Below the pieces are notes generated by a model, which was not told where the DNA came from, did no database searches, and worked only from the letters and a program-made list of their open reading frames with translations. The translations under genes were made by a program, and so were the position numbers. DNA of 64,000 nucleotides from Bolinopsis microptera (Eukaryota; Ctenophora; Tentaculata; Lobata; Bolinopsidae), in NCBI RefSeq assembly GCF_026151205.1, contig NC_087079.1, positions 17,540,945 to 17,604,944 on the forward strand, given 5' to 3'. This document shows positions 12,403-61,541 of the stretch, piece by piece (the stretch's first letter is position 1; each line of letters opens with the position of its first letter).

Positions 12403-12485
12403 GATTGAAATACTGATATCTGGATATTATCCGGTTAGAAGAGACAAGGACAAGTGAAACAAGGAAGTTAGGAGTAAGGGCAAAT

Positions 12486-12509
12486 TTTCGGCGTCAACGC
12501 CATCTTCAG
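12486..12509 (-). ncRNA. Hammerhead-like ribozyme core, PLE minus unit 3
   Basis: Identical to the motifs at 6252 and 9369; it belongs to the 5'-truncated third unit. Confidence 0.45.
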
Positions 12510-12705
12510 GCTAAAATTGTTATAAATGTTAGTATATAATAAATGCTTCTATACTAGTTAAAATGCTAAATTAAAATTACACACACTGAATACAGGTTAC
12601 ATCAAATGGTATTGTACATTACATTGAAAATAGTGATGTACACACGTTTTACACTCTGTTCAAGTACATAATATCTACTGAACAACAGGGTCGTGTGCTA
12701 TTTAT

Positions 12706-15151: not shown

Positions 15152-15347
15152 ATAAATAGCACACGACCCTGTTGTTCAGTAGATATTATGTACTTGAACA
15201 GAGTGTAAAACGTGTGTACATCACTATTTTCAATGTAATGTACAATACCATTTGATGTAACCTGTATTCAGTGTGTGTAATTTTAATTTAGCATTTTAAC
15301 TAGTATAGAAGCATTTATTATATACTAACATTTATAACAATTTTAGC

Positions 15348-15371
15348 CTGAAGATGGCGTTGACGCCGAAA
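15348..15371 (+). ncRNA. Hammerhead-like ribozyme core, PLE plus unit 1
   Basis: CTGAAGA at 15348-15354, stem GGCG/CGCC with a TTGA loop, and GAAA at 15368-15371. AAATTT immediately after is self-complementary. Identical to the other four copies. Confidence 0.45.
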
Positions 15372-15454
15372 ATTTGCCCTTACTCCTAACTTCCTTGTTT
15401 CACTTGTCCTTGTCTCTTCTAACCGGATAATATCCAGATATCAGTATTTCAATC

Positions 15455-35807: not shown

Positions 35808-37262
35808 GTGTTATCGATTAGCGATCGTACGGCATGTTAATTGCACATGGTTCCAGATACGCACAATCAAGATCGTTTAATTGCTTAATTGTTTCCGATC
35901 GTTATTCCTTTACCTTCTCCGTTTCATGCTCTTGGTTGAACACGTAGAGTAGTTACCGTGATCTGCTATGTACCGACATTGTTCATTTCTTGGGTCATTT
36001 CTCTTAGCTAGCTCATTTTGTGTATAGAATCTACATTTATGTTAGTACAAGATCTCACTGCACCTCTACTACTAGGCTAATGTTCTAGAGTAGAATGATA
36101 ATGATCTTATGCTCGTGATGTTACAGCCCACTCCACTCTCTACCCCTCCCTTTCGTTCACTAGAAAAGTTCCACCATCAGTTTGCTACTCAACCACCTCT
36201 TTGATAGCTCAGATATTGTCACAACCCTAGAAATGTACAACTAACAGCTGTTTTCCATGATAACTCGTGTAAGAACACTCTCTCTGTAACGTATGAACTG
36301 CGACTGCATGGAGGCATCCTCTGTGGCAAAAATGGGCGCCGCCGGTCATACGCCGCCGCCGCCGTGAAATAACCCACGCTGCCGCCGCCCACGGCGTCGC
36401 CCATGTCTGCTTTGTGGGCTCCTTAAAAAACCAGTGTATATGGGGCTTATTTCTTCCTTTAGATTATGTGATAATTGTGTTGTATCGAGAAGAGTCCGGT
36501 ATATAATTAGTTGGCAGCCAAGTTGTGACGAGTGTTTTGACACATGGTTATTACTATATTAGACTGCATGATAGGATTACATCACGTTAAACATATTACA
36601 TAATTGTAATTTGTAGAGCAGCGGATATCTCATGATTTGTATCATGGACCTGTCTTACCAAGCTGTGGAGCTGCTGTACTTACACAATTTTAATATTGCT
36701 ATTTTACAATCATGAAAGATTGTGCTCATACCCAAAATATGTTGCAGAAAGCCCACTCAACAGTGTAACATGGCCGCCGCGCCGGCCATCGATTTCCCCC
36801 AAAACAAGGTTATTTTGCTTTGGTTAGTTGAGACGCTGCCTGTTTCGTTGAATGGTTATAATATGGACAGTTTGACACATTTTGACAGAATATAAGTATC
36901 ATGTCACGTGAACAAGTTGTCTTATCTTTGGTAAAGATAAGTCTTTCTTGGAAATTTGATAGCGGAAGTTAACGCAGTCCAAATTGTTTTAAATTCGTCG
37001 GCCGGTTTGGTCGAAAAAGTATCGGTGACCAACTAGAACTGTCAGTGCTACTGATAAATTGCTCGAACATTTGATTAAACGAACTCTTCCTCTTGAGGTA
37101 CCGAAGTCGAACAATAAAAGTTCAACTCAGATGATCAGATCTAAAAAAGTGCAAACTAAAACAAGAAGGTTTTTACTGTACAACTGTAGACTTGAGTAGT
37201 TCAAGTTTTGCTATGGTTTGCGTTTTTGCGACTCTCATGAAATTACAAGATTAAACACCAAA
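35808..37262. other. Unassigned intronic DNA
   Basis: GCC-rich patches at 36329-36405 and 36771-36792, one E-box at 36905. No supported gene. Confidence 0.35.
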
Positions 37263-40847: not shown

Positions 40848-43800
40848 GTAAGAGTTGTACATACACGCAAACGTACACACAAACATACATACATACAGAC
40901 ATACATACATACACAAATTATTGAGGGAGATTAGAGATGTGATCAGAGATAAGGATTTGTTATATCCCGGAAATGTACTTAGATTCTGGCAGTCTGACCA
41001 GTACAGAACATTGATTAAGTTATTAATATCAATATTAAGTTATTAATTTCAATATTTCAATATGGTCGGCTGACTGAAAGCTTATGGAATATCAGTATAT
41101 ATCAGTAAATTCATGATTCTCATTTCAGTTCGACACCTCGAGCAAAGGTTCGATCACCACCAACAGTCTGGGTGATGCTTTGGCAGCTTGTGGAGCTAAG
41201 GTTCCTGGTTTCAAGGTCAGGGACATCTGTGATAGCTACAAAGATGGCGCCATCAGCTTCGATGAGTTCTGCAAGGTCAGTTATTGAGTTATTTTCTTGT
41301 TTTATTTGATTTTGTTATATTTTTGTTTAATATTGTCCTTACAACATTTGTTGTTAAATGTGTTCAGTATTCGTCGTTGAAGCAAATTTCAAAACTGGTC
41401 GATTTATTTAGATTCTGAACCAAGTGAAATCGAAAAACACATTCAAAGAGACAATCAAACCGATTGAGCTGAAGAAGAAGGTTAACGTCAACAAGGGATC
41501 AGAGAAATCGTCTGAGTGGACTACTCACTCTTACGCAGAAGAGGTAATAATTACACGAATCTTATCTTAACTAGCAAATTATGAAATTTTTCTGATTGCA
41601 AAACCGTGCGAAGTATCATTTCTTAACAGATAATTTATATTATGATTGATTGATCATAATGATCGAATAGTTTCCTAATCCCTAATTATAAATATCGATT
41701 AAAGCTTGTGATTAAAGCTTATTTGTATGTCAATTTCAGCCTCATGCTTCAGACCATACGGCCAGACAATCAGTAAATAGCTTTTGAGTTAATCCTAGAG
41801 AGGATTTGAGCTTTTCACTCTTTCGTTGAATTCTTCTACTTAATCTAGCTCTTCATATAAACTCCATAATTGCAATGCAATATTGGTTTATCTTTAGCTT
41901 TGCATGGCTATACGTGACTGCGTTACTCTGCTTTTAGAGGTGCTCGGATGTGTGCGATTTATAATAGTTTGATCTTTACACAGCACTGCTACAGGTTTAC
42001 CATTTTTGACTGTGACGTCTCTGCAAATTTCTCCATTGTCCACCACAATTACCTTACGTTTAAATAATAGAAGCAAGTCTCTCGACTGAAATCCTTTCCA
42101 TCTGGTTTACTTTAAATCTACTTAATTTAGTAGAGGTTGAATATTTTATTTATTATATTGGTAATGAAAACCATTACCAAGTTTGAAATAACTCTTCACC
42201 AGGAAAAACTGGCCTTTGTTGACTGGATCAACTTCCGTTTGAGCAAAGACGAACTCCTACTGAAGCATGGCAATATCCCCATTGCAGAAGATGGTACCGC
42301 TCTCTTTGCAGCTCTTAGGGATGGTATCATCTTGAAGTAAGTGGAATGTGGAGATCAGGATTCAGGGGGCATTTGCCTCTAAATGTTTGGATAATTTTGT
42401 TTTCAATCATTTGAGGTGATATAAAACTATGTAGTTTAAACAAATTTTGTGATGCGCTTGCGGTCACTTATCACCTTGAAAACAGTAAGAAGACATTAAG
42501 AACTCATATCAACTATCGTTTAAAAGATAAATATAGAACAGTCGCATAATGAATATTATATCTGTCAAGCAAATATGTTTGGCGGAATTCAATTGACATT
42601 CTACAGGCAAGTTAAACGTTCAGAACAATAATGCTTTTGACACAACATGTCATGTTATGACGGGCGCTACACAGTCCCTCAATTCAAACTATTGTGTTTC
42701 ATACCTCCTCACCCCAGCAACTATTTAACCTCACATTTACCTCAGCAAGCTGGTAAACGACTCAGTGGAGGATACAGTTGACGAGAGAGCTCTGAATCTG
42801 CCTAATGATGCTGGAAAGTTATCCATTTTCAAGATTCAGGAGAATCAGACTCTTGCCCTCAACTCTTGCGTCGCTATCGGTTGCAACGTGGTCAACATTG
42901 GTGCGCAGGATCTCATCGAGGGTAAAGCTCATCTCTGTCTTGGTCTGTTGTGGCAGGTTGGTTATTCGGTCTTCTTAATTAATTATACTGTGTCACGGTT
43001 ATTTAGTTTAAAAATGAGTCTGGAACCCTCTAAAATAGCTCAACATTTTTCCGCACGGTTAAATTAAATTACACTTTTACTCGATATCGCTTGCCGCACG
43101 CTAGTTATTTTCTCTAAGATATGACAAGTATCCTGAAAATTTGTATTGAGTACATGGATAGAGACGTAGGATTGATCAATACAGTTGATACAGTGCTGTG
43201 TTGCATTATTTAAAGCTTGGTTTTATGATGCTTTGTTTAAGTATATCATATTATGAACCCAGCAACGGAATTCCCAGAAAGTTTGAGGTACATGTTTATT
43301 ACCATTGTTTCATTTTTTGAATTTAACGTTTTAAAACTACGTGAAGTTTGCCTAATGTTTAATCGTTTGTAAACTTCACGATCGAAAAATCACGTTGATT
43401 TAAACATTGGTGTTGGTCAGGTTATCAGGATTGGACTGATGGCTAAGATCACCCTCAAAGACTGCCCCGGTCTCCGAGCTCTTCTGGACGAGTTCGAAAC
43501 TCTCGGTTAGTTCACACTCATTATAATGTAACATTTTAGTTGGTTCATGTAAAGTATAAATGTGATTTGTTATTTTAAAAATAACAAATCACATTTTTAC
43601 TTTACTTGAGTCATGTGTTAATGTATTTACTACAATAACAAATCACATTTATACTTTACTTGAGTCATGTGTTAATGTATTTACTACCATTTCTTATAAT
43701 ATGGTGGAAAATAGACAGAAACACTGAACTACCGACTTTGCTTAAAGTCACGTCCGTCTTGCGTGACTTTGAAAATAGAATATACTACTAGGTATATAAT

Positions 43801-46800
43801 ATAGAATATAGGTGTGGCATTAACTTGAGCCGTTTTTCAACATAACATTGTTTGAGTATTAACTCTTAACCATCTGTTACATTAGATCAAGTAGCCCAAC
43901 TCTGCTACCTACTGTCCACTTCATTATCTATCATATTATTATGATTGACATGTTCAAAATAATGCTACTGAAATCTGCAATGGACCTTGATTAATTCGAC
44001 TCATTTATTTGGTATGAAGGCCATGTATGGCACATGTGGTGCCGAGCAGTCCATTACGTCATAGGCTCCAGTTAATAGATTACTAAAGATGAATGCTCTG
44101 TACATTAATACACCTGTACCTGTGTAAGTGTGTAACACTGTACTTATTGTAATATATTACATATGTAGCGGATCAAGTTACAATAGTAATTACCACCATT
44201 ATTCCTAGTGTCTTTATTCACTCGAGAGCAAATTCTGATAACGTCACTTCATGAATCTAAACTGATTAATATCATCAATACTTATTGTAGATAACAAAAC
44301 TTTAATCTGTTCAAACTCGAAATTGCTCTGATTCCTGTCTTCACGCTACTGCACGATTATATGAATTTACTTTGTAGTTTTGTTAATTCAAATTAAATTG
44401 TATGTACACAAAACTTACTACCATAATAGTTGAACCGTAAAGATTTTTATTCTTTTATAAAAAAAACAAGCGAGTACCTATGCACAAAAAGTACAGAATT
44501 TATGCCCCGAGTTACTCTAACACTCACCATTTACTTTTTACAGCAGAGTGTGTTGGTTTTGGTTTTGGTTTAGGGAGCAAACTTACCACATAGGTCCAGG
44601 ATCGAAATCAACGTATACAGGGTGGCCCAGAGTAAATGTCCACCTTGTATACCGTATTGGAACGTATACAGGGTGGCATAGAGTAAATGTCCACCCTGTA
44701 TACCGTATTGGAACGTATACAGGGTGGCATAGAGTAAATGTCCACCCTGTATAATACCGTATTGGAGTTACGATACTTAGAAGATTAGTATGGCTACAGC
44801 GTTTTAGTAATGATAGTTAATTTACAATACAAAATACAGAACTTACAATCATAATAGTTGAACGGTAAAGATTTTTCTTCTATAAAAAAGAAACGAGTGT
44901 ACACAAAAAATTACAGAATTTATGGCCCAGAGTTAGTGTTAACACTCACCATTTACTTTTGTCACAGTGTACATTAGTAATGGTAGTTAATTTACAATCC
45001 ATTATATAGTACATACCAATAACCTGTACTATAGGTTATTGTCTCCGTTACACAGCTTGACTTGACCACATGGGGCAGCTACAGTCAACTCTATCACAGC
45101 CATATTAGCCAACACTTCTCATTACTGATTATCTAGATCTATATTTTCATTAGTTATAACTTAGCTTTTCCAAGAGCTCGAAGTGATCGTCCATAACAAT
45201 CTCACGTATGTTAAAAATTAGCTGGCAAACCTACACTACCTATACTACTGCACTAACTATACTACTACACTACTTGTTGTGTTTACCTACACGACGTGTA
45301 TATGTGAGGAAACTTAAGGCCTGAGCCAAGGGGGGGGGGGGGGGGGGGGGTAAATTATAATTTTTCCAGTTTTTCTTTTAAAAAGCGAATCTGAGGTAAA
45401 GTTAACCTCATATGTCAAGAACAGAGGCAAATATCAAAATTCTGTACAATAGAATTGTGTGAAACAGTCTAAGGAACACCTGTGCCAAGTTTCAGGTCCT
45501 GGGTGCAGGTGTGGCCAGTCTTTTCCAAAAGTTAAGCTCTAACTAAAGTTAAGCTCTAACTAAAAAAGATATTAAGAGTTAAAGTTTTACATGTTATTAC
45601 AGGTAAACCTCAAATTTTGGCGCGCAATATCTCAGCAACGCAAGGTCAGGTTTTTATGCGTTTTTTTTTCTACTTGTTCATCTCCAGCAGCTCTGATCAA
45701 ATATGTGAAAACTGCAAAAACGATTTTTACCCCCCCCCCCCCCCCCTCTGGCCTTAACCACTAAAGTTACGCTACACTGATCTTGTAACTCTCGTGGTTA
45801 ACCCACACAGCTTTATCATAATTAATGTTATACAGTTTATGCAGTATGTACAATAAGTGTGCAATCATGGTTTCCGCGTATGGCTGATTGCCAGGACGCA
45901 TTGGTCAGGTCAATATACTATAGTCCCTGCTCCTTATAATATTACAATGATCGTATTACAGATAATATCACTGCACATTATAAACGTAGCAAAATGTTTC
46001 CTCGCAATGTAACTGAATTGTGCGGTGTTTATACATTCCAGAATGTACATACCAATGTACTCATAACATTGCCTCCCTGAATTTACTTACCAGCTGGCAG
46101 CTGCAGAAGGAAATTATTGACTGTTCGTTCCACTGCAATGTCCACTGTACACTGGTCGCTGAATAACAATGATCTAGAGTCTTGTCTGAAATAATAATTT
46201 ATCGGTATCCACTAAATCCACTCCATTATTTCACGATTAGATGACGTCTTTAAACTGACTGATTCCAGATATAATCGTTATTGGCTAGTCTATACTTGCA
46301 GTGAGCGCGGTTTGACACAAACACGTAACTGCTTACTTTATGAAGGAGCACTTAGCTAGCAACTAGATGCTAGGTACGTTCTCATGTGGTAAGGAACCAC
46401 GCCCTAATTCAAACCCTTGACACGTCCTGCACACGATCAACACTGCTTTTATTGGACATGTGACATCATGCTAAGCTACAAAGGAAGCTGGAGATACGTC
46501 AGAACTGGCAAATGATCTATATCTCCCTGTTAATGACTAAACTGCTGACTTTATGAAGGAGCACTGAGTTACTTACTAGCGTGTCAACTATTTAGGATAT
46601 AACTAGTTTTTAAAGGATAAGTCAGGAGTGTAATGATTGTGTCAACTAGATTAGTATTATATATTATTATATATATACTACTAACTAGCTTTAAAGACAG
46701 TGAATATTTCGTTCCGTGGTGTGTTGGGTTTTATTGTTGCCAAATTTGGCGCTTACCTTACCTTGTATTATGTTGTTATTATACTGTCATGACAAAGTGA

Positions 46801-49800
46801 CAACATCATCACACCACATCATCCCTCTTAGTTAAACTACGTTACTATTTTATAAATGTTTACTGTGGAAATGTTGCCTGCCAAAATACGACTAAAAAAA
46901 CAGAATAGAATTACAATTTATTTGTGTATGTAATCTAACTGAAGTTAAGTTGTGGCAGTCTAACAAAATGAATAAAAACACGAACGACTAAAAAGTAAAA
47001 AGGTAAAAGCAGCCAAAATAAGAGACCTATCTAGACGTCTCAATATCCAATCAGATGCTCAGAACCACGCCACTGTCCAATCACAAAGCTGGTTCTAATT
47101 TGGTGATAAAACTACAATTTTGACCCGGATATTCCCGTCCCTCTAGTGGAAGAATGAACGATAGTGTAAACTGAAAATGACCTGGAAATAAGGCAAAAGT
47201 AAGGGTGAAGTAACTGGGTGTACTATATTTAGAGGTGATATTATATTTCACATTCTATTACACATCATATTTAATGAATCCTAACAAGACCCGTAAGATT
47301 GAATTATATTTTATGCTTTCATATATTCTAGACCTACATTGCAGCATGGACTTCTAACACGAGATGTAAACCGTGAACATTACAATTGAACATACTCATT
47401 TACTTGTCTCTCACTCTGTTGTGACTATTTATAATAGTGGGACTACTGTTTCTGAAACCCTCAACAGTCAATATAAAGTAGTTTTATAATCAATATAATG
47501 TAAAATTTCAGAACAGTTTCTGGCTCTGGGGCCTGAAGAGATTCTACGTCTTGGAAGTAAAATAAACGAGCTGTAAAATGCTAGTTGCTGGCTATGTAGT
47601 ATAAGAAACGAGCTGTAGAATTTCAGAAGTTTATGGCTATATCCCCTGAAGAGATTCTTTGTTTTGGAAGTAAAATAAACGAGCTGTAAAATGCTAGTTG
47701 CTGGCTATGTAGTATAAGAAACGAGCTGTAGAATTTCAGAAGTTTATGGCTATATCCCCTGAAGAGATTCTTTGTTTTGGAAGTAAAATAAACGAGCTGT
47801 AAAATGCTAGTTGCTGGCTATGTAGTATAAGAAACGAGCTGTAGAATTTCAGAAGTTTATGGCTATATCCCCTGAAGAGATTCTTTGTTTTGGAAGTAAA
47901 ATAAACGAGCTGTAAAATGCTAGTTGCTGGCTATGTAGTATAAGAAACGAGCTGTAGAATTTCAGAAGTTTATGGCTATATCCCCTGAAGAGATTCTTTG
48001 TTTTGGAAGTAAAATAAACGAGCTGTAAAATGCTAGTTGCTGGCTATGTAGTATAAGAAACGAGCTGTAGAATTTCAGAAGTTTATGGCTATATCCCCTG
48101 AAGAGATTCTTTGTTTTGGAAGTAAAATAAACGAGCTGTAAAATGCTAGTTGCTGGCTATGTAGTATAAGAAACGAGCTGTAGAATTTCAGAAGTTTATG
48201 GCTATATCCCCTGAAGAGATTCTTTGTTTTGGAAGTAAAATAAACGAGCTGTAAAATGCTAGTTGCTGGCTATGTAGTATAAGAAACGAGCTGTAGAATT
48301 TCAGAAGTTTATGGCTATATCCCCTGAAGAGATTCTTTGTTTTGGAAGTAAAATAAACGAGCTGTAAAATGCTAGTTGCTGGCTATGTAGTATAAGAAAC
48401 GAGCTGTAGAATTTCAGAAGTTTATGGCTATATCCCCTGAAGAGATTCTTTGTTTTGGAAGTAAAATAAACGAGCTGTAAAATGCTAGTTGCTGGCTATG
48501 TAGTATAAGAAACGAGCTGTAGAATTTCAGAAGTTTATGGCTATATCCCCTGAAGAGATTCTTTGTTTTGGAAGTAAAATAAACGAGCTGTAAAATGCTA
48601 GTTGCTGGCTATGTAGTATAAGAAACGAGCTGTAGAATTTCAGAAGTTTATGGCTATATCCCCTGAAGAGATTCTTTGTTTTGGAAGTAAAATAAACGAG
48701 CTGTAAAATGCTAGTTGCTGGCTATGAAGTATAAGAAACGAGCTGTAGAATTTCAGAAGTTTATGGCTATATCCCCTGAAGAGATTCTTTGTTTTGGAAG
48801 TAAAATAAACGAGCTGTAAAATGCTAGTTGCTGGCTATGTAGTATAAGAAACGAGCTGTAGAATTTCAGAAGTTTATGGCTATATCCCCTGAAGAGATTC
48901 TTTGTTTTGGAAGTAAAATAAACGAGCTGTAAAATGCTAGTTGCTGGCTATGAAGTATAAGAAACGAGCTGTAGAATTTCAGAAGTTTATGGCTATATCC
49001 CCTGAAGAGATTCTTTGTTTTGGAAGTAAAATAAACGAGCTGTAAAATTCTAGTTGCTGGCTATGTAGTATAAGAAACGAGCTGTAGAATTTCAGAAGTT
49101 TATGGCTATATCCCCTGAAGAGATTCTTTGTTTTGGAAGTAAAATAAACGAGCTGTAAAATGCTAGTTGCTGGCTATGAAGTATAAGAAACGAGCTGTAG
49201 AATTTCAGAAGTTTATGGCTATATCCCCTGAAGAGATTCTTTGTTTTGGAAGTAAAATAAACGAGCTGTAAAATGCTAGTTGCTGGCTATGTAGTATAAG
49301 AAACGAGCTGTAGAATTTCAGAAGTTTATGGCTATATCCCCTGAAGAGATTCTTTGTTTTGGAAGTAAAATAAACGAGCTGTAAAATGCTAGTTGCTGGC
49401 TATGTAGTATAAGAAACGAGCTGTAGAATTTCAGAAGTTTATGGCTATATCCCCTGAAGAGATTCTTTGTTTTGGAAGTAAAATAAACGAGCTGTAAAAT
49501 GCTAGTTGCTGGCTATGTAGTATAAGAAACGAGCTGTAGAATTTCAGAAGTTTATGGCTATATCCCCTGAAGAGATTCTTTGTTTTGGAAGTATTTTAAG
49601 GACGATATGTAAAATTTCAGAACAATTGCTTGCTATGTCCCCCGAAGAGAGACTGTGTTTTAGAGGTATTCTAAACGAGATATAAAATTTCAGAACAATT
49701 GCTGGCTATGTCCCCTGAAGAGATACTGTGCAGGTGGGTCAACTATCAACTCAACAAGGTCGGGTGTAAACGAGTCGTCAAGAACTTCACTCATGTAAGT

Positions 49801-52800
49801 TGAACATTTTATTCACGGTTACGTCACGAATTTGCAATGTTTATCTTGCTTGTTTTGAAACGTTATGAAAATAATCCAACTGTATTCTGTACAGCTATAT
49901 ACTGTATAGTGTATACAACTGATTATTGTTTATTTGGAGTGATTATAAAAACGCTTAGTTTGAGAGGTGTCATTTTGAAAAGTTAGCCTTGTAATTTACA
50001 CTGTATTACAATCAGGAACTCTAAGTATAAAGCACTGTAGAATTATTGATAAAACCTCTAAATTACACATTACAGCTCACTGTACGAGATGAACCACACT
50101 TATCATACGTTACTCAAACCTTGACTTGAGTAAAATGTGAATATTTTACCTGATAATAATAATAATCATGTTAAGGAATTGTAATAGGATTAGTGTCAGT
50201 GAGTATAAGGTATGTTAGCTGTGGAGCGTGAACCGGTGAACGGTTACTGGTCGTGTCATAGCCAGACTAATGAATAACTGTCACACCTTCATAAGATTAC
50301 AGATAAACTGTCATCTTTATTGAGATATTGACAAATGACAATACAAGCTGCTTAGCTAGACACAGATTTTCCATCCTGACTATTTATAAGGTAACAATTT
50401 GTAGTGTTATGTTACAAACTGTGGTTAAAATGATGTTAGTTTGATGTTAATCTTAACATTAATTGTTATTCTCTCACAGGATATCAAGGACAGTGAAGTA
50501 TACGCTCATTTGCTGGTAGCTGTATGTCCTGATGACAACGCCAAGGGACCAATTGGACTGGAGCCTCTCAATGTAAGTAAAATTTGTAATTATTTTAAAC
50601 TCAGACATAGATTTATTTAAGATTTAAATGGAGAAAACTGCCAAGTTAAAGTTAATTTTATACAGTAAAGAAGGGCTTGGTGATCGCTTGTTGTGCGTTG
50701 TATGTAAGACAGCTTAGGTTTCCTGAATACGTTTCCGTTAATTGGTGCACATACTTCAGCTCATACCTCAGCAGTGTGACGAAGTTATTATATTTACCAT
50801 ATTATACTAATGTCTTGCATAAATCATAATAATAGATTTAAAGTTATGTCATATCTTGTCGCCTTCTGTTGATTACTCCTATATTACCTGGACTGTTTAT
50901 CCCAAAATGGAAACTTGACAAATGACCCTGAGAAGTTTACTCAATACCCAATATATCTATATTTATTTATCTATTTATAGTATTATGGTAAAAATCGAAT
51001 TATAATCATTAGAGAAAATAAGAGGAATTATAACTGAACGTTACAAGTTAATCGCCTACTACATTACATTGAAGATCGTTACAATAATTAATTGGACAGA
51101 TTACCAAATTATTCTCTCCCCGTTACTAAATGTTTCCGTTATAAAGTCCCCCACTAATGTCCCACTCTAAATGTGGATAGCTGACATGTAGTCGTATGAA
51201 ATGATTGATAAAGGAGTATTTTTATTGAGGTTGCGTTAGACGGTTCGGGAGCTCTCAGGAATAAATCAAGAATTACATTAATTACGTGTCGAGTGTGCAC
51301 AGTGGGGCACAGTTACACGGTTTATCTGTTATTGCTCTAATTTGACTGAGTCTTACACTTTCTACTAATTTTACAGTTTACCATGTGTAGGAGATTTAGA
51401 CTAACGTCACTTGACAGTTAGATTAGAGCTACCCGAGTTGGGATACAAATTCTGATTGAACAATATATTTTACATATATAATTGTATAGCACGGTGATGT
51501 TAATATATATAATGCAACTTACATATAACATGTAATTTTACAGTGATGATGAAAAAGGATTTATAGTTAAATATATATCTTATTCCTTTATATCATGGCA
51601 GGTAAGATTGTGACAGTTTTAAATATGGCGGGTTGGTCCAAGAACTGCCAACTTTTAACCACCATAATATTAAGTATTAACTTCTTTTTTAATTATCGTT
51701 CATTATTCGCTCCATTATCAGAGTACACTGATCTCGTGGAAAATGGACGTAAGACATTAACTTGACCTTGTAATCTAAGACATGAACTTTTTTACTGCTT
51801 GAGACTCTAGTGACTCTATATACTTCTATAACTTTCTAATTTACCTTTATTTTCTACCAGCTCAATTGGAAAGTCTCAAGCACTGTGCACATTTTGCAAT
51901 ATTTATCAAACAATTGCCGTCTTAAAACAAGCAGAGGTAACAATAGATGTTTATTTCTGTGCTGATTGCCGGCCCTGAGAAATATAAATAATCTCGCTTT
52001 TCTACACGTGAGATTATAGTAGTGTGATTATAGTGCACTGATTGATGTGACAATATTGTGTCCAAGTGTGACCTGACTTCTTAATGAAGTAATGAAGAAT
52101 GTGACCAGCGCGTGAGAAATGGCATTTGTATGAAATTTCATGGAAATTTGGTGTACGCTAGAGGTTAATTAAAAATTACTTGGCTGGTAATTTATATAAT
52201 CTTACTTACTCGCTCTTTTCCACAAAACGATCAATAAGATCGGGAAACCTCTTTAATCTTACCTGCATTATATATACCTGCACTATCTTACCTGCATTTC
52301 AATCATATTTCCGTCTCTAATTAGTATCCTGATTTCTGCATATTTTATGGAAATAATAAACAGTTTCTAGTAATTTGTATGAAAGATAACTTTTGCAAAC
52401 TTCTATTCATTTCAAGAGTAGAGAATATTTCAATCTTCAGATTAAGTTATAGATTTACAGTAAGAGTGACTAGACCTCTTGTATTAAAATACGGACTTTT
52501 CAATAAAAAATCCTTGAACTCAGAATCCATACTACTAGACGCGCCCCATTCTTTTCGTATATTATTCTAAAGGGATTTTAGATGATCCATCAATATAGCT
52601 AGCTATCTTAGCATAGTTTAATTTACTATCAATAATGAACTTAATTGTGCAGAAAAGCTCTCTCATATTATGAATTAAGTTTAAGATTATACAAAATACA
52701 CCTATACGTAGTTCCAGTCTGAAATATTTCTGATTTAAAGTAAAATTAGCCATTACATCATGCTTGTGATGATAATATCTTGATACGCTATAAGTTGAAT

Positions 52801-55800
52801 TAGTAAATAGTGAATAGTGAATACACAATGTGTATTCAGTATAACTTCATCTCACGACATCATATCACGTGATCTTCATACTTTTTAATTGGTCCGACTT
52901 ACATCATTACTGTTTTACTGTACTAGGGATAAACAAGCATATCAATACTAGCTATTCACTTATAATCAAGCACATAAACAATTGGAGGAAAGTCCCATGT
53001 TACCAGGACATTACATTGAACAAACCAACGAACAAGAAAACAAACTAAAGTACTCTCTAACCTGGACAGTACTTAGATATCAAATAAAAATGTAACTCTT
53101 CTGTATCTCTATAAGATTGCACTGACACAGGTTCAAGATTTGACCAAGCGAGCTGAGATGGTGCTGGATAACGCGGAGATGCTTGACGCACGATCCTTCG
53201 TGCGCGCGCACGACATCGTCAACGGTAACCAGAAGCTCAACTTGGCGTTCGTTGCTAACTTGTTCAACATGTACCCTGCTATGGATGATGTAGGCGACTT
53301 TGAGATTATAGAGGAGACAAGGGAGGAGAAAAGTAAGTTTTATAATTTAATTATAATTGTCATATTTTAATTGATTGATATGTATAAGGTGAGAAATATA
53401 AATTATGAGATGTAATAACTCTGAATAGTACATGATTATTTGGACGAATTTGATACGGCGCTGGGAAAAGAGGGCCGAGAGGAGTTTGGTGAGAATAGTG
53501 CTCTTATTGTACTGTGTACCCTACTGTACTGTGTACCCTACTGTACTGTGTACCCTACTGTACTGTGTACCTACTGTACTGTGTACCCTCCTGTCATGTA
53601 CCTACTGTGTACCCTACTGTACCTTATCATAGTGCCCTGTTATTCAGGATATCATGATTCTAAGCAAAATGTTTCTAGTTTTGTGAAAAGTGCTCATTAG
53701 ATTTACACCTCGTATCTGAGAGAAACACTGTACGTTTTACATTTGTGAAATAATCTCTCAATAATAGTGACTGTTGCCATGGTTATCGTATCACACATTT
53801 GTTTTTTGTTGAGAAAAACTAGCACTTAAAATGCATGTACTGTTGTTCGGTGTTTTGCGTCCGTTCAGTGTTCATGTATTAAGTGGTATAACGTGTTACG
53901 ACTTTACGAAAATTAACTTGTAAGAGTGTTAATTTAATTGAAGTTGCAAGTTTTGTGATTGGTGAAATTTTAACTCTTAAATTTTCATTTTTGGTAACTT
54001 TTTATGAAGTAACTTTTAATAAATAATATAGAAAATATCAGAATGCAACGTTGTTATGTTCAGCGGTATAAATTTCCTAATTTTAAAAGTTTTAACATTT
54101 AGATTTACGGTTATAACGGTAAGGATATGGTAATATTTTTCAATTTAATATTAATTTTTCGTCCCAACAATGTAATTTTAACAGTTTGATTAAAGGTAGT
54201 GCACTTTTAACATTCACTCTCTAGTAAGGAGACATCATATAATTATAATATTATATGATTCATATTAATTATGCAAGTGTTCAGGGTGCTTTTAAAAGAG
54301 GGTTTAAGAACACATTCCTGATGTGAACATTTACATCCAGCATGCTTAATATAAACATCCAGGAATAACTTACATTCAGAATTTTACGTCTAGGAGCGTA
54401 TTCATAGCACATCCATGATCATGTTCACAGCACTTCAGAAATTGTGAACTGCATGATAATATCCTACAATTTTGAAATGCATTGTTATTTCGTCACAACT
54501 ATAGCTCTAACAGGGATGTAGAAATTACAAATGTTGGTTTCTACTCTCCCTTTGTGTAAAACCTTGACGCTTCTTTTTTTAAGATTGTATTGAAAATTGT
54601 AACAGGGAGGAAGGTCTGTAACATTTAGGAAGTTAATTACAAATCCCCAGTCGCTCTCTGGGAAAATTCAGATGTACAGAAAATTCTAGAAAACACTGCT
54701 CCAGTCGTTCTCTGGGAAAATTCAGATGTACTAGGAAAAAGGACTTTGAGTCTCTTCCTTCCTCATTATACTTTTAGATATAAAATAGGATATTTCTTGA
54801 TTAGCTGCACTGTATGGCGTGGGTACAAACATATTTAAATATTTCAGCAATGAAAAGGTGGATCCAGAGTTTAATATGTGAGCAGATCGAATACTTTGAA
54901 GACTCAGATGACGAAGAGGAAGAAGAGGAATTCCAAGATTGCGTGGAATTTTATGAGGCCTCTGAAGGATCAGGCAGAGCCCCTGAGGCAGAGGGAGGAG
55001 ATAATAATTCAGATAAAAAGGATGGAACTGCTGATGGAAATTCCGTTGAAATTCCCAGTGGGACTTCCACCGGAGGCTCAACAGGAGCCTCTACTGGGAC
55101 AGCCAATACTAGCTCTGATAGGTCACATGGGGGAGCTGCAGGAGAGGATGCGGCTAAAGATGCGGCTAAAGATGCGGCTAAAACTGGTGGCGGTGAGAAG
55201 ATGACACTAGATCCTCGAGCATTCTTCAGCAGATTCTACTTTCTCATCTAGCTAGCACGCTTCAACAGATTCTCTCTGACTCAGCCCCAGCCACTTCTTT
55301 CTAAATTGACCAGCACACAACAAAGATTAATATATCTACGATCACCTTGATAATCAGCAACTTAGTTGATTTCGTAACATTTGTACTTTTTCTTCACTTC
55401 TGATGATTGCAAAGAACTATTTAATGAAGAGCATTTAATTGGTAAATCCCTTAACTAAACCGTCGGTATGTTTCAATATCAGAAAAACATCTGTTTTTAA
55501 AATTCCTATTTACTACAACCATGTGGCATGATCTCATTACTCTTGAGGAATTTGAGGAATGTAAGCGAACATTTACATTTAGCATGCTTCATATTTACAC
55601 TCAGATGTGAGGAGACTAATATTTAATGTGTGTCCCGCAGTGGCGTAACGTTGCCTGTTGGCCCCCGCCCCCCCCCCGCTACTGGTGTCCCGCAGTGGCG
55701 TAACGTGCCTGTTGGCGTCCCCCCCCCCCGCTACTGGTGTCCCGCAGTGGCGTAATGTTGCCTGTTTGGCCCCCCCCCCCTACTAGCGCCCCCCCCGCTA

Positions 55801-58800
55801 CTGGTGTCCCGCAGTGGCGTAATGTTGCCTGTTGGCCCCCCCCCCCCTCTACTAAGCGCCCCCCCCCCGCTACTGGTGTCCCGCAGTGGCGTAACGTGCC
55901 TGTTGGCGCCCCCCCCCCCCGCTACTGGTGTCCTGCAGTGGCGTAACGTTGCCTGTTGGCGCCCCCCCCCCCCCGCTACTGGTGTCCTGCAGTGGCGTAA
56001 CGTTGCCTGTTGCCCCCCCCCCCCCGCTACTGGTGTCCTGCAGTGGTGTAACGTTGCCTGTTGGCGCCCCCCCCCCCCGCTACTGGTGTCCCGCAGTGGC
56101 GTAACGTTGCCTGTTGCCCCCCCCCCCCCGCTACTGGTGTCCCGCAGTGGCGTAACGTTGCCTGTTGGCGCCCCCCCGGCCCCGCTACTGGTGTCCCGCA
56201 GTGGCGTAACGTTGCCTGTTGGCGCCCCCCCCCGCTACTGGTGCCCCCCCCCCCCCCGCTACTGGTGTCCCGCAGTGGCGTAACGTTGCCTGTTGCCCCC
56301 CCCCCGCTACTGGTGTCCCGCAGTGGTGTAACGTTGCCTGTTGGCGCCCTCCCCCGCCCCCCCCCCCCCCGCTACTGGTGTCCCGCAGTGGCGTAACGTT
56401 GCCTGTTGCCCCCCCCCCGCTACTGGTGTCCCGCAGTGGCGTAACATTCCTATTGCAACTTAATTTGATTAAGCCGGGTTACCATAGAAAAACTGCAGTA
56501 ATAACCCACTTCTTCTTTTGTGAATGACTAGCTCAGCTATGCTAGAACAAATTCCAGAAAATACCTGTGTTTAGTCTATGAGTTACATAATTGGCCAGCT
56601 GCCCAACAGCTACCTATAATAATAACTATCTGTTACGAGCGCCTCCCCATCTTTACCCCTCTCAGAAACTAGTTGCCAGGGTTATTGCGCGGATAAGGTT
56701 TCAGATAATGGTAGTCACCAGTTTCAAAGTTGGTAGAATGTAATAAGGTAGAATTAGAACAATTAACCCGCAAACTATCCGGGGGAGCTTTTGTAACAGA
56801 ATGATTTTGGTGGTGTCTCTTGACAGTGTACCGCTTCATAAACAGCCCAGATTATATTTCTTGTAATTCAAATATTCAACTCATCTTAGTGATAATATCA
56901 TGATGGGTATATTATTATTATTATTATTTTGATTTACGACTTTCATCTATGAACGATTAGAGCACACCAAAATCTAAATTCCTAAAACTGTTATCACATT
57001 TCATATTCTCACCTGTGGTTAACAATAAAACGTGGATACGGTTATATCATATTCAAACTAAACTTTGAGCAGTTATAATGTGTTGAGTGTTAGTGTAGCC
57101 CTATGTGTGAGAGGGTACCACAGAAATAGAGTGATACAATTCCAACTCCAGTAATGATTGCATTCCATAACCATTGTACAGGCGCCGACTAATGCTCTGA
57201 TATTTCCAACAATATTTTAATTACAGCATTTATATGGAGCCAGATGATGATAATGCGTATATTTTCAGCTATGAGGAACTGGATGAACAGTCTTGGGGCT
57301 ACTCCTCGTGTTAAATATATCTACCTTTTCAGCTATGAGGAACTGGATGAACAGTCTTGGAGCTACTCCTCGTGTTAAATATATCTACTTTTCAGCTATG
57401 AGGAACTGGATGAACAGTCTTGGGGCTACTCCTCGTGTTAAATATATCTACTTTTCAGCTATGAGGAACTGGATGAACAGTCTTGGAGCTACTCCTCGTG
57501 TTAAATATATCTACTTTTCAGCTATGAGGAACTGGATGAACAGTCTTGGGGCTACTCCTCGTGTTAAATATATCTACTTTTCAGCTATGAGGAACTGGAT
57601 GAACAGTCTTGGAGCTACTCCTCGTGTTAAATATATCTACTTTTCAGCTATGAGGAACTGGATGAACAGTCTTGGAGCTACTCCTCGTGTTAAATATATC
57701 TACCTTTTCAGCTATGAGGAACTGGATGAACAGTCTTGGAGCTACTCCTCGTGTTAAATATATCTACTTTTCAGCTATGAGGAACTGGATGAACAGTCTT
57801 GGGGCTACTCCTCGTGTTAAATATATCTACTTTTCAGCTATGAGGAACTGGATGAACAGTCTTGGGGCTACTCCTCGTGTTAAATATATCTACTTTTCAG
57901 CTATGAGGAACTGGATGAACAGTCTTGGAGCTACTCCTCGTGTTAAATATATCTACTTTTCAGCTATGAGGAACTGGATGAACAGTCTTGGGGCTACTCC
58001 TCGTGTTAAATATATCTACTTTTCAGCTATGAGGAACTGGATGAACAGTCTTGGAGCTACTCCTCGTGTTAAATATATCTACTTTTCAGCTATGAGGAAC
58101 TGGATGAACAGTCTTGGGGCTACTCCTCGTGTTAAATATATCTACTTTTCAGCTATGAGGAACTGGATGAACAGTCTTGGGGCTACTCCTCGTGTTAAAT
58201 ATATCTACTTTTCAGCTATGAGGAACTGGATGAACAGTCTTGGAGCTACTCCTCGTGTTAAATATATCTACTTTTCAGCTATGAGGAACTGGATGAACAG
58301 TCTTGGGGCTACTCCTCGTGTTAAATATATCTACTTTTCAGCTATGAGGAACTGGATGAACAGTCTTGGGGCTACTCCTCGTGTTAAATATATCTACGAA
58401 GATCTGAAGGACGGTCTTGCAATCATCCAGGTTTGCAGCAATCTTCTAATGTTTTTCTGTGTAAGGTAGAAGTGGTCTCTATTATTCTGGTTTATATTTG
58501 CCGATAACCTAATTCTTTTGGCTGAAGAAGCTAAATTGGTAGATTGATCGGTGAACCCTAACCAAGTTCTCAAGGATCAACCCTCTCATTTATCTTAGTC
58601 CTTACGCTAATTTAACCCCCCCCCCCCCCCCCCCCCACCTTAACCTTTACCACGAGCTGAGCGATTAGCCAAACGTAGACTGAGGACTCCATACCAGGCT
58701 TTACAGCCTTTAGCTCTATGTCTAACCCCAGTCCCTAACTGCAACCCTACCGGCCTAACGTATACTCTTGCGTGTTTCCTTACCCAAGCAAGACAGGTAG

Positions 58801-61541
58801 CATACCCAACGAGCCTAACTGTTACCACATTCCACTCCCTGTTTTCATTGCATGACCTCTAAAAGCATTTGTTCTGCGGAACGACGGAAGTCGATTATCT
58901 CAAGATCCTATTGAGTACTGTATGTGATTTTCTTGAAACTTTCCGGATAGCAAGACAGGTACTGCAAGAGTAACATACTGTGACAGTTAGAATATAAATT
59001 TTATGTGCCAAATTGAGATATCGATTCAAACACAAGAATAACTTTATGTTAGTGAATTGTATGGATCAATATCTCGAATTTGGCACATAGAAATTTATCA
59101 AAATTTGCATGGTATGTCCATCTTACCATCTGGAAAGTTTCAAGAAAATCGTATATTCAAATTTGGATAAAATCCACCGTGTTCCGTAGAATTCACTAAT
59201 TTGTTTTATACCCAAACAATTGTATTCAGATCTAGAAACAATCTTAAAACGTTTTTTGTTAAGTAACATTAAATGTACTGCTAAAAACCTTGACTTTCGG
59301 CCTTGCAATTTGAAACAGTTTTGTCGAAAGTTCATTTTCTATGAGTCCCTTTGTAGATGTTCTCCGTGTATACTGAATACGTAGCGCGCGGTGACATAAA
59401 ATCTCCAAAAGGACTTCGCGCACTCTTGTTTAGCAGCTACATTAACATAGAGCGCGTCAGTCCGTGCTCGGTCGCACAGAAGCACGTGCGAAGATTGAGT
59501 AGATTCATATCTTGTAGATCGATCTCTCGATTCTAACTATTTAGCCGCAGGTGCATAGGCATTGACAAGCAACACAACTGATTTATCTCAAGCTTCACGA
59601 CTTAAATTTTCAGCTGTTCGACAAGATACAGAACGGATGTGTTAACTGGAAAAAGGTAAACACGCCTCCTTTCAAAGCTCTTGGTGGTGCCATGAAACAG
59701 ATAGAGAATTGTAACTACGCCATTGACCTTGGACACAACTTGGGCTTCGTTCTTGTCGGTAGGTTCCTCGGTCAGAATTTCGATAACTTGGTGTATCCAG
59801 TATCGAATCGTAATATTTATTTCAATCAAAGTGTGCTATTCAATAAATTGCTCTTTACTGGGCCGCGCTCAGCCTGTCATTCCGCCGAATCTCTATTCGG
59901 TTGTTTTATGAACATAATAGCCTGAGGTCCCCAGGTAAATTGCTCTATGATATTTTATATTGAATATCGTAATGATTCTAGAATGGTAAGTCAAAAGGAA
60001 TTGCAAACCAATTTTACTGAGCTACGACTAACACACAACTGAAATTTAAGAAAATGAATATGTCCATTGCGTTCAGGAATTGACGGTAAGAACTTGCACG
60101 ACGGAGACAAACTGACTCTGGGACTTGTCTGGCAGATGATGAGACATTACACTCTAGCTATGTTGACACACGACGGCAAGATCATGAAAGATAACGAAAT
60201 CATCAAGTGGTGTAACAAGTAAGTTGATGATCATAAATCTTTTCGGCATATTCACCCGTTATTAGTGAATAATTAGCAGCGAGTAAAAGAATCGAATGTC
60301 ATACAAATACAATGTTGCAAATTTGATTAAAAACTAATAATAATATTCAAAGCGACTGAAACTGGCTAAACCCATCCTAATTAAAACATATTGGTCACAC
60401 TTTAAAAGCGAATACTCATAATTTGTAACTAAATTTGATCACAGCAAGCTGGAGAGCGCTGGCAAGACCACAAACTTTAAGTCTTTCAAGGACTCTTCTC
60501 TGGGAACCTCTCGTCCTATTGTTGACCTGATAGATGCTATCAGTCCTGGTTACATCAACTACGATCTCGTCACAGCTGCCGAAACAGACGATGTTAGTTC
60601 TCATTTGTTTAATTGTTAAGTTTTACTTGGAGAATCGCTGTTTGCAGTATGTACAAACATTACTAATATTTGATGACTAATATTTCGTTTAAGTATGCTA
60701 GGTAATGTTAAACCATGTTTTTATTTCCAGGATAAGTTCCTGAATGCTCGATATGCTATCACCATGGCCAGAAAGATCGGCGCAAGAATATTCGCTCTGC
60801 CAGAGGACATCACGGAGGTAATTTATGGAAATCAATTAATCTCTAATTAATTTTAATTACTTTAACCTCGACTTCTTATTTTGAAAAGAATCACTGCTTA
60901 GTGTTTATCGGGGTCAACAGAATATCTCATTATGGCTACAAATACCACATGTATTCAAACTCAAAATGGCCAAAAAGGATTAAAATTGTGTGGGGGGGGG
61001 GGGGGGAATCGGAAAAAACCTACATTTTAATATACTTTAATATACCTACAATTAGTAGATTTATATTCTTCCGTTTTTCGTTAAGATTTACAAGATAAGC
61101 CAATTGTTAGTCCCCTGAACTCATACTTCATATATTTTAGCCCATAAATTGGTCAAATATCAATATCTTTGAACAAGACTAACTTTACATGAAAGGTAAA
61201 TCTAATCTATACATTAGAGGCCTTTAAAGAAATTAAGCGGCCAAATTTTGAATCGAGATAAGATAGGTATATTAAAGTATGTTAAAGTATATTAAAGTAT
61301 ATCCCCGGGTCAAAATTGGAAAAAAACCTACATTTTAATATACTTTAATATGGTTGCCCCCCCCCCCCCCCAATTCGTGATCATTGCTGATTGTCTTGAG
61401 CAATTCTAAATCACAATAGCCCCCACCCCCAACCATATATGTTATTGTCTAATATAAATATTATTCCAGGTCAACCCGAAGATGATAATGACAGTATTCG
61501 CCTGTCTTATGAGTGTAGGATTTGCTAAGGACAGGAAATAA
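40779..61541 (+). CDS. PLS: Plastin/fimbrin actin-bundling protein (15 coding exons)
   Basis: Exons: 40779-40847, 41129-41275, 41412-41543, 42203-42336, 42746-42956, 43421-43505, 49694-49794, 50480-50572, 53131-53332, 58342-58430, 59614-59758, 60077-60218, 60445-60592, 60731-60817, 61470-61541. All junctions are GT-AG and in phase, total 618 residues, against about 627-630 in vertebrate plastins. Order: paired EF hands (about 20-75), linker, CH1 (about 117-235), CH2 (258-365), CH3 (392-500), CH4 (510-618). The two CH pairs are actin-binding domains that cross-link filaments into bundles. Diagnostic segments are [38 protein letters not shown] and the C-terminal [12 protein letters not shown]. 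Introns 6 (6.2 kb) and 9 (5.0 kb) carry splice-site arrays. Confidence 0.93.
41129..41543 (+). CDS. PLS: Plastin exons 2-3: EF-hand pair and linker
   Basis: Exon 2 (41129-41275) encodes loop 1 [12 protein letters not shown] and loop 2 [12 protein letters not shown]. Loop 1 has Ser at position 12, where Glu normally gives bidentate Ca coordination; loop 2 has Tyr at position 3. Ca binding may therefore be weak, whereas vertebrate plastin bundling is Ca-inhibited through this module. Exon 3 (41412-41543) is the Lys-rich linker to CH1, ending THSYAEE. Both exons are phase 0/0. Confidence 0.88.
41740..41772 (+). CDS. PLS: Possible 33-nt cassette micro-exon in plastin intron 3
   Basis: A good acceptor (CAATTTCAG) and donor (GTAAAT) bracket 33 nt in phase 0 that read [11 protein letters not shown] without a stop. 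Inclusion would add 11 residues to the linker just before CH1. No homolog is recalled, so it could be chance. Confidence 0.3.
42203..43505 (+). CDS. PLS: Plastin exons 4-6: CH1 and start of CH2
   Basis: Exon 4 (42203-42336) starts CH1 with [13 protein letters not shown] and ends in a split AAC codon. Exon 5 (42746-42956) carries [11 protein letters not shown], the NLALNS-type helix ([13 protein letters not shown]) and [11 protein letters not shown]. Exon 6 (43421-43505) continues [10 protein letters not shown] to DEFETL, ending phase 1. This spans the first actin-binding CH domain and the inter-CH linker. Confidence 0.9.
43537..43690. repeat. Hairpin with adjoining direct duplication in intron 6
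   Basis: About 75 bp form a near-perfect palindrome centred on TTTTAAAAATAACAAATC (43537-43612). Its right half is then repeated directly to about 43690. MITE-like, but too short to classify. Confidence 0.6.
44411..44968 (+). repeat. Direct duplication flanking a 3-copy 53-bp repeat
   Basis: 44411-44552 and 44837-44968 are diverged copies. Between them, 44600-44760 contains three units with TATACAGGGTGG...CCACCCTGTATA, each itself palindromic at the ends, as in MITE termini. Confidence 0.65.
45312..45760. repeat. Inverted-repeat element with poly-G and poly-C ends
   Basis: TTAAGGCCTGAGCCAAG plus about 22 G at the left is mirrored by about 17 C plus CTCTGGCCTTAACC at the right. About 380 bp lies between, with no ORF. 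Possibly a MITE whose termini have grown homopolymers. Confidence 0.45.
45761..47503. other. Intron 6 interior, no gene
   Basis: AT-rich intron sequence with a TATATATATA stretch near 46670. No supported exon in the CH2 frame was found. Confidence 0.4.
47512..47556 (+). CDS. PLS: 45-nt exon-7-like mini-exon, outer copy
   Basis: Acceptor AAATTTCAG, then 45 nt in the phase of exon 7: (G)AA then [14 protein letters not shown], donor GTAAAA. It matches exon 7 ([11 protein letters not shown]...) over its first 14 codons. It enters and leaves in phase 1, so inclusion would not shift the frame. Either a decayed duplicate or a rare cassette. Confidence 0.35.
47564..49620 (+). repeat. 113-bp array of exon-7 acceptor/pseudo-exon copies (18 units)
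   Basis: Eighteen copies with exact 113-bp spacing (acceptor AG at 47625-47626 through 49546-49547). Each holds TTTCAG plus 43 nt related to the start of exon 7 (AAGTTTATGGCTATATCC...), a GTAAAA donor-like end and a second, more decayed half copy. The 43-nt length puts a TGA in the exon-7 frame, so use of any unit would truncate the protein. Units differ at only a few positions (TGTAG/TGAAG), indicating recent homogenisation. Confidence 0.92.
49621..49665 (+). CDS. PLS: 45-nt exon-7-like mini-exon, inner copy
   Basis: Directly after AAATTTCAG (49612-49620), 45 nt read (G)AA then [14 protein letters not shown], then a GTATTC donor. It is nearly identical to exon 7 over 35 nt and lies 73 bp upstream of it. 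Phase 1 in and out, so inclusion keeps the frame. Confidence 0.4.
49694..53332 (+). CDS. PLS: Plastin exons 7-9: CH2
   Basis: Exon 7 (49694-49794) encodes [19 protein letters not shown]. Exon 8 (50480-50572) encodes [17 protein letters not shown]. Exon 9 (53131-53332) encodes [32 protein letters not shown] and ends EETREEK plus one base. Together they complete CH2 and the acidic hinge to the second actin-binding domain. Exon 9 is locally GC-rich. Confidence 0.9.
50573..53130. other. Plastin intron 8
   Basis: 2.56 kb, AT-rich, no repeats or alternative exons that I can support. The small open frames near 52379-52828 lack splice or family support. Confidence 0.5.
53429..53488 (+). CDS. PLS: Candidate 60-nt cassette exon 9b of plastin
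   Basis: Acceptor CTGAATAG and donor GTGAGA bracket 60 nt that enter and leave in phase 1: [19 protein letters not shown]. The end (EGREEF|G) mimics the end of exon 9 (EETREEK|). Inclusion would insert 20 residues into the hinge before CH3 without a frameshift. The upstream pyrimidine tract is weak. Confidence 0.45.
53508..53632 (+). repeat. 17-bp tandem repeat (TACTGTGTACCCTACTG)
   Basis: Six to seven units with truncated variants, just downstream of candidate exon 9b. Confidence 0.85.
54848..55251 (+). CDS. PLS: Candidate alternative terminal exon of plastin with acidic tail
   Basis: Acceptor AATATTTCAG at 54838-54847. Read in the phase left by exon 9 it gives T-MKRWIQSL, matching T-MRNWMNSL at the start of exon 10. 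It then departs into [20 protein letters not shown], a Ser/Thr/Gly-rich stretch, three AAKD repeats and a stop at 55249. It looks like a duplicated exon-10 start fused to new coding sequence. Use would replace CH3-CH4 by about 130 mostly acidic, disordered residues, removing the second actin-binding domain. No AATAAA is obvious downstream. Confidence 0.6.
55636..56447 (+). repeat. Poly-C-bearing minisatellite, about 60-bp unit
   Basis: About 13 units of GTGTCCCGCAGTGGCGTAAC, GTTGCCTGTTGGC and 8-14 C then GCTACTG. Homopolymer length varies between units, so frames shift and no protein is implied. Lies in intron 9. Confidence 0.93.
56448..57268. other. Intron 9, 3' part
   Basis: No gene. A second acceptor-like AATTACAG near 57224 opens a frame into the first array unit but is out of phase with exon 10. 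(ATT)n at 56910-56927. Confidence 0.4.
57269..58397 (+). repeat. 63-bp array: 18 copies of the exon-10 acceptor and exon start
   Basis: Each unit is CTATGAGGAACTGGATGAAC... (56 nt of exon 10, coding [18 protein letters not shown]) plus TTTTCAG. Every unit thus carries a 3' splice site directly before an exon start. Differences are almost only GGG/GGA for one Gly codon (synonymous) and two 1-bp insertions in pyrimidine tracts (before units 2 and 8). Units 8-18 share the exon-10 frame, so an acceptor in any of these 11 gives an open protein with 0-10 extra 21-residue repeats. Confidence 0.93.
58342..59758 (+). CDS. PLS: Plastin exons 10-11: CH3
   Basis: Exon 10, drawn from the last array acceptor (58342-58430), encodes [18 protein letters not shown] then [11 protein letters not shown]. 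Exon 11 (59614-59758) encodes [35 protein letters not shown] and LGFVLV. The previous exon ends REEK plus one base, giving [14 protein letters not shown], very close to vertebrate plastins. Which of the 18 acceptors is used cannot be decided from sequence; the last gives the family-standard length. Confidence 0.88.
58431..59613. other. Plastin intron 10 with a palindromic element
   Basis: 58872-59191 is an imperfect inverted repeat (ends TTCTGCGGAAC and GTTCCGTAGAA; arms about 150 bp), MITE-like. Poly-C lies at 58617-58637. No gene. Confidence 0.5.
59854..59938 (+). repeat. Dispersed 85-bp repeat, copy 1
   Basis: Matches 63142-63228 closely (CTCAGCCTGTCATTCCGCC, TATGAACATRATAGCCTG, GGTCCCCAGGTAA). 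Lies 95 bp after exon 11. Family unknown. Confidence 0.75.
60077..61541 (+). CDS. PLS: Plastin exons 12-15: end of CH3 and CH4
   Basis: Exon 12 (60077-60218): [20 protein letters not shown]. Exon 13 (60445-60592): [19 protein letters not shown] and [17 protein letters not shown]; donor GTTAGT. Exon 14 (60731-60817): [20 protein letters not shown]. Exon 15 (61470-61541): [14 protein letters not shown]...KDRK and stop. This completes the second actin-binding domain; the C-terminus matches the family without extension. Confidence 0.92.
60993..61376. repeat. Duplicated/inverted TTAAAGTATA-type repeats with poly-G/poly-C
   Basis: In intron 14, the segment ACCTACATTTTAATATAC is present at 61018 and 61327, with inverted TATATTAAAGTATG units between. 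Poly-G (60993-61007) and poly-C (61355-61370) bracket it. It resembles the homopolymer-bounded element at 45312-45760. Confidence 0.45.

What the first reader, a model, noticed from the sequence alone, without database searches (positions are those of the whole stretch)
57269..58430. Eighteen tandem copies of a 3' splice site plus exon start at plastin exon 10
Each 63-bp unit joins TTTTCAG to the first 56 nt of exon 10. The unit is a multiple of three and its only base substitutions are synonymous (one Gly codon, GGG/GGA). Eleven of the acceptors (units 8-18) keep the reading frame, so acceptor choice could yield plastins with 0-10 extra 21-residue MRNWMNSLG repeats in CH3. The absence of replacement changes suggests recent expansion or selection on the encoded peptide. 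Function is inference.
Basis: partly seen in the sequence, partly recalled or inferred. Interest (0 to 1): 0.85.

Follow-up and report, generated by a model that had tools for sequence, protein, structure and literature searches.

The report
Splice-site minisatellite in comb-jelly plastin
In a comb-jelly genome the start of one plastin exon, with its splice signal, is repeated 18 times in a row; similar arrays sit at other exon edges in the same genome, where only the copy next to the exon can work, so this is most likely a neutral "mirage" minisatellite rather than a device for making variable proteins.

Summary
Eighteen near-identical units of TTTTCAG plus the first 56 nt of plastin exon 10 occupy 57262-58397. 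One site varies (synonymous GGG/GGA), two units carry an extra C, and acceptors 8-18 keep frame.

The interpretation does not hold up well. The genome is a ctenophore (13 chromosome-scale contigs, 264.65 Mb, Bolinopsis-like) full of minisatellites, and arrays across exon boundaries recur. The same gene has a second one at exon 7: 21 acceptors, with every upstream decoy giving three or more stops. Another CH gene has a 46-bp x 29 acceptor array whose decoys all give stops. Two further genes have donor arrays, one of them 63 bp x 6 and open in frame in a Cdc42/Rac-like gene. The exon-proximal site is required in the acceptor arrays, so the last exon-10 acceptor is the likely one here. It restores a CH3 colinear with human PLS3.

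One synonymous site has a 20-29% prior, so it is no evidence of selection. The kind is known: amphioxus "mirages", including an acceptor + exon-start array in globin BflGb6.

New are the phylum, the copy number, and natural sets of competing identical splice sites. No transcripts were available; low-level in-frame use of units 8-17 is not excluded.

The parts
57262..58397 (+). Array of 18 units (63 bp, two of 64 bp): TTTTCAG acceptor + first 56 nt of plastin exon 10
58342..58430 (+). Plastin exon 10 as defined by the last (exon-proximal) acceptor; encodes (T)[29 protein letters not shown], start of CH3
   Evidence: colinear with PLS3 residues 401-431, phase-1 junction
57705..58397 (+). Units 8-18: acceptors whose use would keep the reading frame without stops
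57262..57704 (+). Units 1-7: acceptors whose use leads to a premature stop (separated from units 8-18 by 1-bp insertions)
53129..53332 (+). Plastin exon 9 (approximate start), ending ...GAGGAGAAAA before donor GTAAGT
41129..61540 (+). Plastin (fimbrin) gene: EF-hand exon and four CH domains in about 14 exons found by tblastn with human PLS3; first exon not identified
47505..49693 (+). Second, older acceptor + exon-start array in the same gene, at exon 7 (113-bp units x 18, two 73-bp copies, 21 ATTTCAG acceptors); every upstream acceptor leads to stops
49694..49792 (+). Plastin exon 7 (approximate 3' end), used from the last acceptor
59614..59760 (+). Plastin exon 11, rest of CH3 (approximate end)

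Best explanation
The array is a recent minisatellite of the 'mirage' kind: a short stretch across the intron 9 / exon 10 boundary (7 nt of intron, 56 nt of exon) was tandemly duplicated and then expanded to 18 copies by slippage or unequal exchange. It lies upstream of the working exon and behaves as intron. The spliceosome most likely joins exon 9 to the last, exon-proximal acceptor (58342), the one that gives a normal-length CH3. The identical upstream acceptors are then decoys, used rarely or not at all. Because 63 is divisible by 3, leaky use of acceptors 8-17 would add 21-residue blocks in front of CH3, while use of acceptors 1-7 would truncate the protein. Shown here: array structure, frame consequences, other boundary-spanning arrays in the genome, and arrays whose decoys cannot encode protein. 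Inferred: which acceptor is used, neutrality, expansion mechanism.
For: Array and frames. The last acceptor yields a sequence colinear with human PLS3 without gaps. Same gene, exon 7: 20 decoy acceptors, all giving 3 or more stops. L021 (C8:18064297): 46-bp x 29 acceptor array, every decoy giving 3 or more stops in the frame that keeps the exon open. L025: 52-bp x 16 donor array; in the frame of the CH exon, use of the later donors tested runs into stops. L072: 63-bp x 6 donor array in a Cdc42/Rac-like gene. Two-copy boundary duplications, possible seeds, in L023, L062 and L065. TRF arrays cover 8965 of 107922 bases of the CH sample, 3574 of 84340 of the Ras sample and 8858 of 64000 of the window, so overlap with exon edges needs no special mechanism. 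Amphioxus mirages: same anatomy, splicing reported as undisturbed (PMC3087553).
Against: No transcript data. Acceptors 9-18 have locally identical upstream sequence, so nothing in the DNA alone forces use of the last one. Units 8-18 form an intact open frame with no replacement change, which is what low-level translation would also look like. Length polymorphism, expected of a neutral minisatellite, could not be tested.
Confidence: 0.8

Rival explanations
1. Acceptor choice in units 8-18 produces functional plastin isoforms with 0-10 extra 21-residue blocks ahead of CH3, changing the spacing between the two actin-binding halves.
For: 63 bp is a multiple of 3; phase-1 junction fits; units 8-18 open and stop-free with identical acceptors; polypyrimidine content of internal acceptors is at least as good as that of unit 1 (sequence).
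Against: Other boundary arrays in this genome (exon 7 of the same gene, L021) cannot encode protein yet persist, so arrays do not imply coding use. One synonymous site is no evidence. Units 1-7 are frame-broken. Each block duplicates the first helix of CH3, an unlikely stable addition. The AlphaFold2 beta-solenoid is a known artefact for perfect repeats (PMC11795689).
Confidence: 0.06
2. The first acceptor (unit 1), which keeps the original intron end and branch region, is used at least part of the time; the resulting frameshift exon (1162 nt) soon meets a stop and lowers plastin output through decay or yields a protein with only the first actin-binding half.
For: Scanning from an upstream branch point favours the first AG (established splicing knowledge); unit 1 sits next to the real intron end; stop reached within 40 codons.
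Against: It would disable the gene on this haplotype if dominant, and the exon 7 array would do the same; the rest of the gene is open and colinear with PLS3; amphioxus mirages splice normally.
Confidence: 0.1
3. Copy number is an assembly artefact or differs strongly between haplotypes and individuals, so that 18 copies is not a property of the species.
For: Near-identical units; amphioxus BflGb6 has 6 and 3 units in two haplotypes and was misassembled in the draft (PMC3087553).
Against: The array is 1.1 kb, within one long read; distinctive order of G/A and extra-C variants; contig of 18.5 Mb. Polymorphism would not conflict with the best explanation.
Confidence: 0.04

Closest known systems
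Amphioxus 'mirage' minisatellites (Adh3; globins BflGb6, BflGb9), PMC3087553
   Same: Tandem repeats whose unit spans an exon-intron boundary and carries the splice signal. BflGb6: 3' end of intron + 5' part of exon 2, as here. BflGb9: donor side, as L025 and L072. Several genes in one genome.
   Different: Ctenophore rather than cephalochordate; 18 copies instead of 3-6; 63 bp instead of 150-160 bp (Adh3 10-72 bp); units 98-100% alike instead of 81-100%; unit divisible by three, so some decoys keep frame. Polymorphism and RT-PCR known there, not here.
Intron gain by tandem genomic duplication (potato RdRp case, PMC4974935; Rogers model as discussed in PMC3087553)
   Same: Tandem duplication that copies splice signals within a gene.
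   Different: Here no new intron is apparent; the copies are extra acceptors of an existing intron.
Tandem acceptors (NAGNAG type; own knowledge)
   Same: Several competing 3' splice sites at one exon, some keeping frame.
   Different: Spacing of 63 nt with copied exon sequence, not 3 nt; alternative use not shown.

Membership tests
Mirage minisatellite (exon-intron boundary tandem repeat) | Tandem repeat whose unit spans an exon-intron boundary | tested here: met
   7 intronic + 56 exonic nt per unit, 18 units
Mirage minisatellite (exon-intron boundary tandem repeat) | Splice signal retained in the copies | tested here: met
   TTTTCAG|CT intact in all 18
Mirage minisatellite (exon-intron boundary tandem repeat) | Found in several unrelated genes of the same genome | tested here: met
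   Plastin exon 7, L021, L025, L072; two-copy cases L023, L062, L065
Mirage minisatellite (exon-intron boundary tandem repeat) | Length instability between haplotypes or cells | not testable with these tools
   Single assembly; one match only
Mirage minisatellite (exon-intron boundary tandem repeat) | Regular splicing of the mRNA not disturbed | not testable with these tools
   No transcripts; indirect support from arrays whose decoys give stops
Plastin / fimbrin gene | EF-hand N-terminus and four CH domains in order | tested here: met
   PLS3 tblastn hits in order 41126-61529; PDB best hit Plastin-3, 5.4e-51
Regulated alternative acceptor cluster producing protein isoforms | More than one acceptor used in mRNA | not testable with these tools
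   No cDNA available
Regulated alternative acceptor cluster producing protein isoforms | Excess of silent over replacement change among units | tested here: inconclusive
   One variable site, synonymous; prior 0.20-0.29

The most novel reading that the evidence does not exclude
Plastin in this ctenophore exists as a length series: acceptors 8-18 are all used, inserting 0-10 copies of a 21-residue block between the two actin-binding halves, and a 5'-side mirror array (63 bp x 6, open frame) does the same in a Cdc42/Rac-like GTPase. Minisatellites at splice sites would then generate protein length variants in ctenophores.
Probability: 0.05. Interest if true: 0.85.

Novelty: new member of a known kind. 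Interest (0 to 1): 0.42.

Why it matters
These arrays are natural experiments on splice-site choice. Up to about 20-30 nearly identical acceptors (or 16 donors) compete at one exon, and in the exon 7 and L021 arrays only the exon-proximal one can give protein. Reading which is used from existing cDNA would test exon definition against first-AG scanning directly. The arrays also show how abundant minisatellites in a ctenophore genome intrude on gene structure and could seed new introns or exons, as proposed for amphioxus.

Tried and rejected
Selection on the peptide from the silent-only pattern: rejected, one site only. Folding of the repeat peptide: AlphaFold2 gave a beta-solenoid, pLDDT 77, pTM 0.79, which is a documented artefact for perfect repeats, so no fold search was run. 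Pfam hits of the repeat reading frame to Terminase_6, HipN and others are repeat-driven chance matches. Enrichment of arrays at exon edges: not seen; roughly 1-2% of sampled exon edges against 4-8% of bases in arrays. L027, L030, L033, L055 and L058 have arrays near exons, but boundary overlap was absent or unclear. No literature hit for ctenophore minisatellites at introns in the held library.

Full report
Observation. Reading the sequence and running TRF confirm 18 head-to-tail units at 57262-58397. Each is TTTTCAG plus the first 56 nt of an exon. Spacing is 63 bp, except 64 bp after units 1 and 7, where one C is added. The only substitution is G/A in a Gly codon. The array occurs once in the assembly.

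Gene. tblastn with human PLS3 places plastin exons in order from 41126 to 61529. The PDB search with the CH exons gives Plastin-3 first. Exon 9 ends GAGGAGAAAA|GTAAG and the last unit begins CAG|CTATGAGG, a phase-1 junction reading E-E-K-T-M-R-N-W, colinear with PLS3 R-E-E-R-T-F-R-N-W. Use of the last acceptor therefore gives a CH3 of normal length. Acceptors 8-17 would add 21-residue blocks just ahead of an intact CH3; acceptors 1-7 end in a stop.

Organism. G000 has 13 chromosome-scale contigs (C1-C13 of 15-26 Mb, C14 only 0.2 Mb) and 264.65 Mb. An ionotropic glutamate receptor from it is closest by far to Mnemiopsis ML032222a (407 bits against 244 for the next kind), similar but clearly not identical. 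Ctenophores have n = 13, and Bolinopsis microptera is listed at 265 Mb (PMC10232365, PMC11797021). I take it as a lobate ctenophore, probably Bolinopsis; the species is inference.

A second array in the same gene. Upstream of exon 7 lies a 113-bp x 18 array plus two 73-bp copies that derive from that exon's acceptor and start. It holds 21 ATTTCAG acceptors. From every one of the 20 upstream acceptors the reading frame meets three or more stops; only the last gives exon 7. It looks older, because its exonic parts have diverged from the exon.

Other genes. I sampled 41 exons matching CH (or plastin) and 70 exons matching Ras in 192 kb of this genome. Arrays of three or more copies across an exon edge were found at L021 (acceptor, 46 bp x 29), L025 (donor, 52 bp x 16) and L072 (donor, 63 bp x 6, in an exon of a Cdc42/Rac-like gene that was not in the matched list). 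Two-copy duplications at exon edges occur in L023, L062 and L065. In L021 all decoy acceptors give at least three stops in the frame that keeps the exon open; in L025 the later donors tested give stops in the frame of the CH exon. Two of the five multi-copy arrays have units divisible by three, about what chance gives. Tandem arrays cover 8.3% of the CH sample, 4.2% of the Ras sample and 13.8% of the window, so overlap with exon edges needs no special cause. The sample is small and not random, so the frequency is rough.

Mechanism. In the exon 7 and L021 arrays functional protein requires the exon-proximal acceptor, although upstream copies are locally similar or identical. The simplest rule is exon definition: the site nearest the partner splice site across the exon wins. 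Applied to exon 10 it predicts use of the last acceptor, with the other 17 units behaving as intron. That is inference; no transcript was available. [quoted passage not shown]

Selection claim. A random substitution in the unit is synonymous with probability 0.20 (0.29 for transitions). One synonymous site, shared by several units through array turnover, is one event at minimum. Two frame-breaking insertions also persist. There is no evidence for selection on the peptide.

Structure. AlphaFold2 turns the read-through repeats into a beta-solenoid. This is a documented artefact of perfect repeats (PMC11795689) and disagrees with the helix that this sequence forms in CH3 (established plastin structure), so I give it no weight.

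Comparison. The match to amphioxus mirages is close. [quoted passage not shown] BflGb9 duplicates the donor side. The tested defining features are met; instability and undisturbed splicing could not be tested. In the held library I found no earlier report for ctenophores, which is weak evidence of novelty.

Verdict. A real and tidy feature, best read as a recent boundary minisatellite in a genome where such arrays recur. The more general finding, arrays of competing identical splice sites in several ctenophore genes, is the part worth following with cDNA.

Noticed in passing
47505-49693: Second boundary-spanning array in the same plastin gene, at exon 7: 21 ATTTCAG acceptors, 20 of them leading to stops.
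   Followed up: yes
L072 2806-3187 (G000:C4:3870400-3873600): Cdc42/Rac-like exon end plus donor repeated six times, 63 bp, identical, open frame: a 5' mirror image of the plastin exon 10 array.
   Followed up: partly
L021 3443-4780 (G000:C8:18061000-18068000): 46-bp x 29 array of acceptor + exon start at a CH-domain exon, minus strand; decoys give stops.
   Followed up: yes
L025 1222-2046 (G000:C3:17023100-17027200): 52-bp x 16 array of a donor site at a CH-domain exon, minus strand.
   Followed up: partly
54848-55248: Open frame in plastin intron 9 directly after ATTTCAG; starts TMKRWIQSL in the same phase as exon 10 TMRNWMNSL and ends in an acidic tail and stop. Local alignment score 36, 0 of 2000 shuffles reach it; single copy in genome. 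May be a diverged copy of exon 10 used as an alternative last exon.
   Followed up: partly
6475-18265: Apparently identical 945-aa reverse transcriptase ORFs with a C-terminal stretch that looks like a GIY-YIG endonuclease (Penelope-like from memory), repeated head to tail and in inverted order.
   Followed up: no
23661-23879: Interstitial TTAGGG array (22 copies) flanked by 15-bp repeat blocks, one containing CTCTAGGGCG and the other its near reverse complement.
   Followed up: no
31083-33441: 18-bp x 133 array GGTGAGGGAGGTGTAGGT, strongly G-skewed, open in several frames.
   Followed up: no
34871-35810: 72-bp x 13 array, 99% alike, inside a 394-aa open frame.
   Followed up: no
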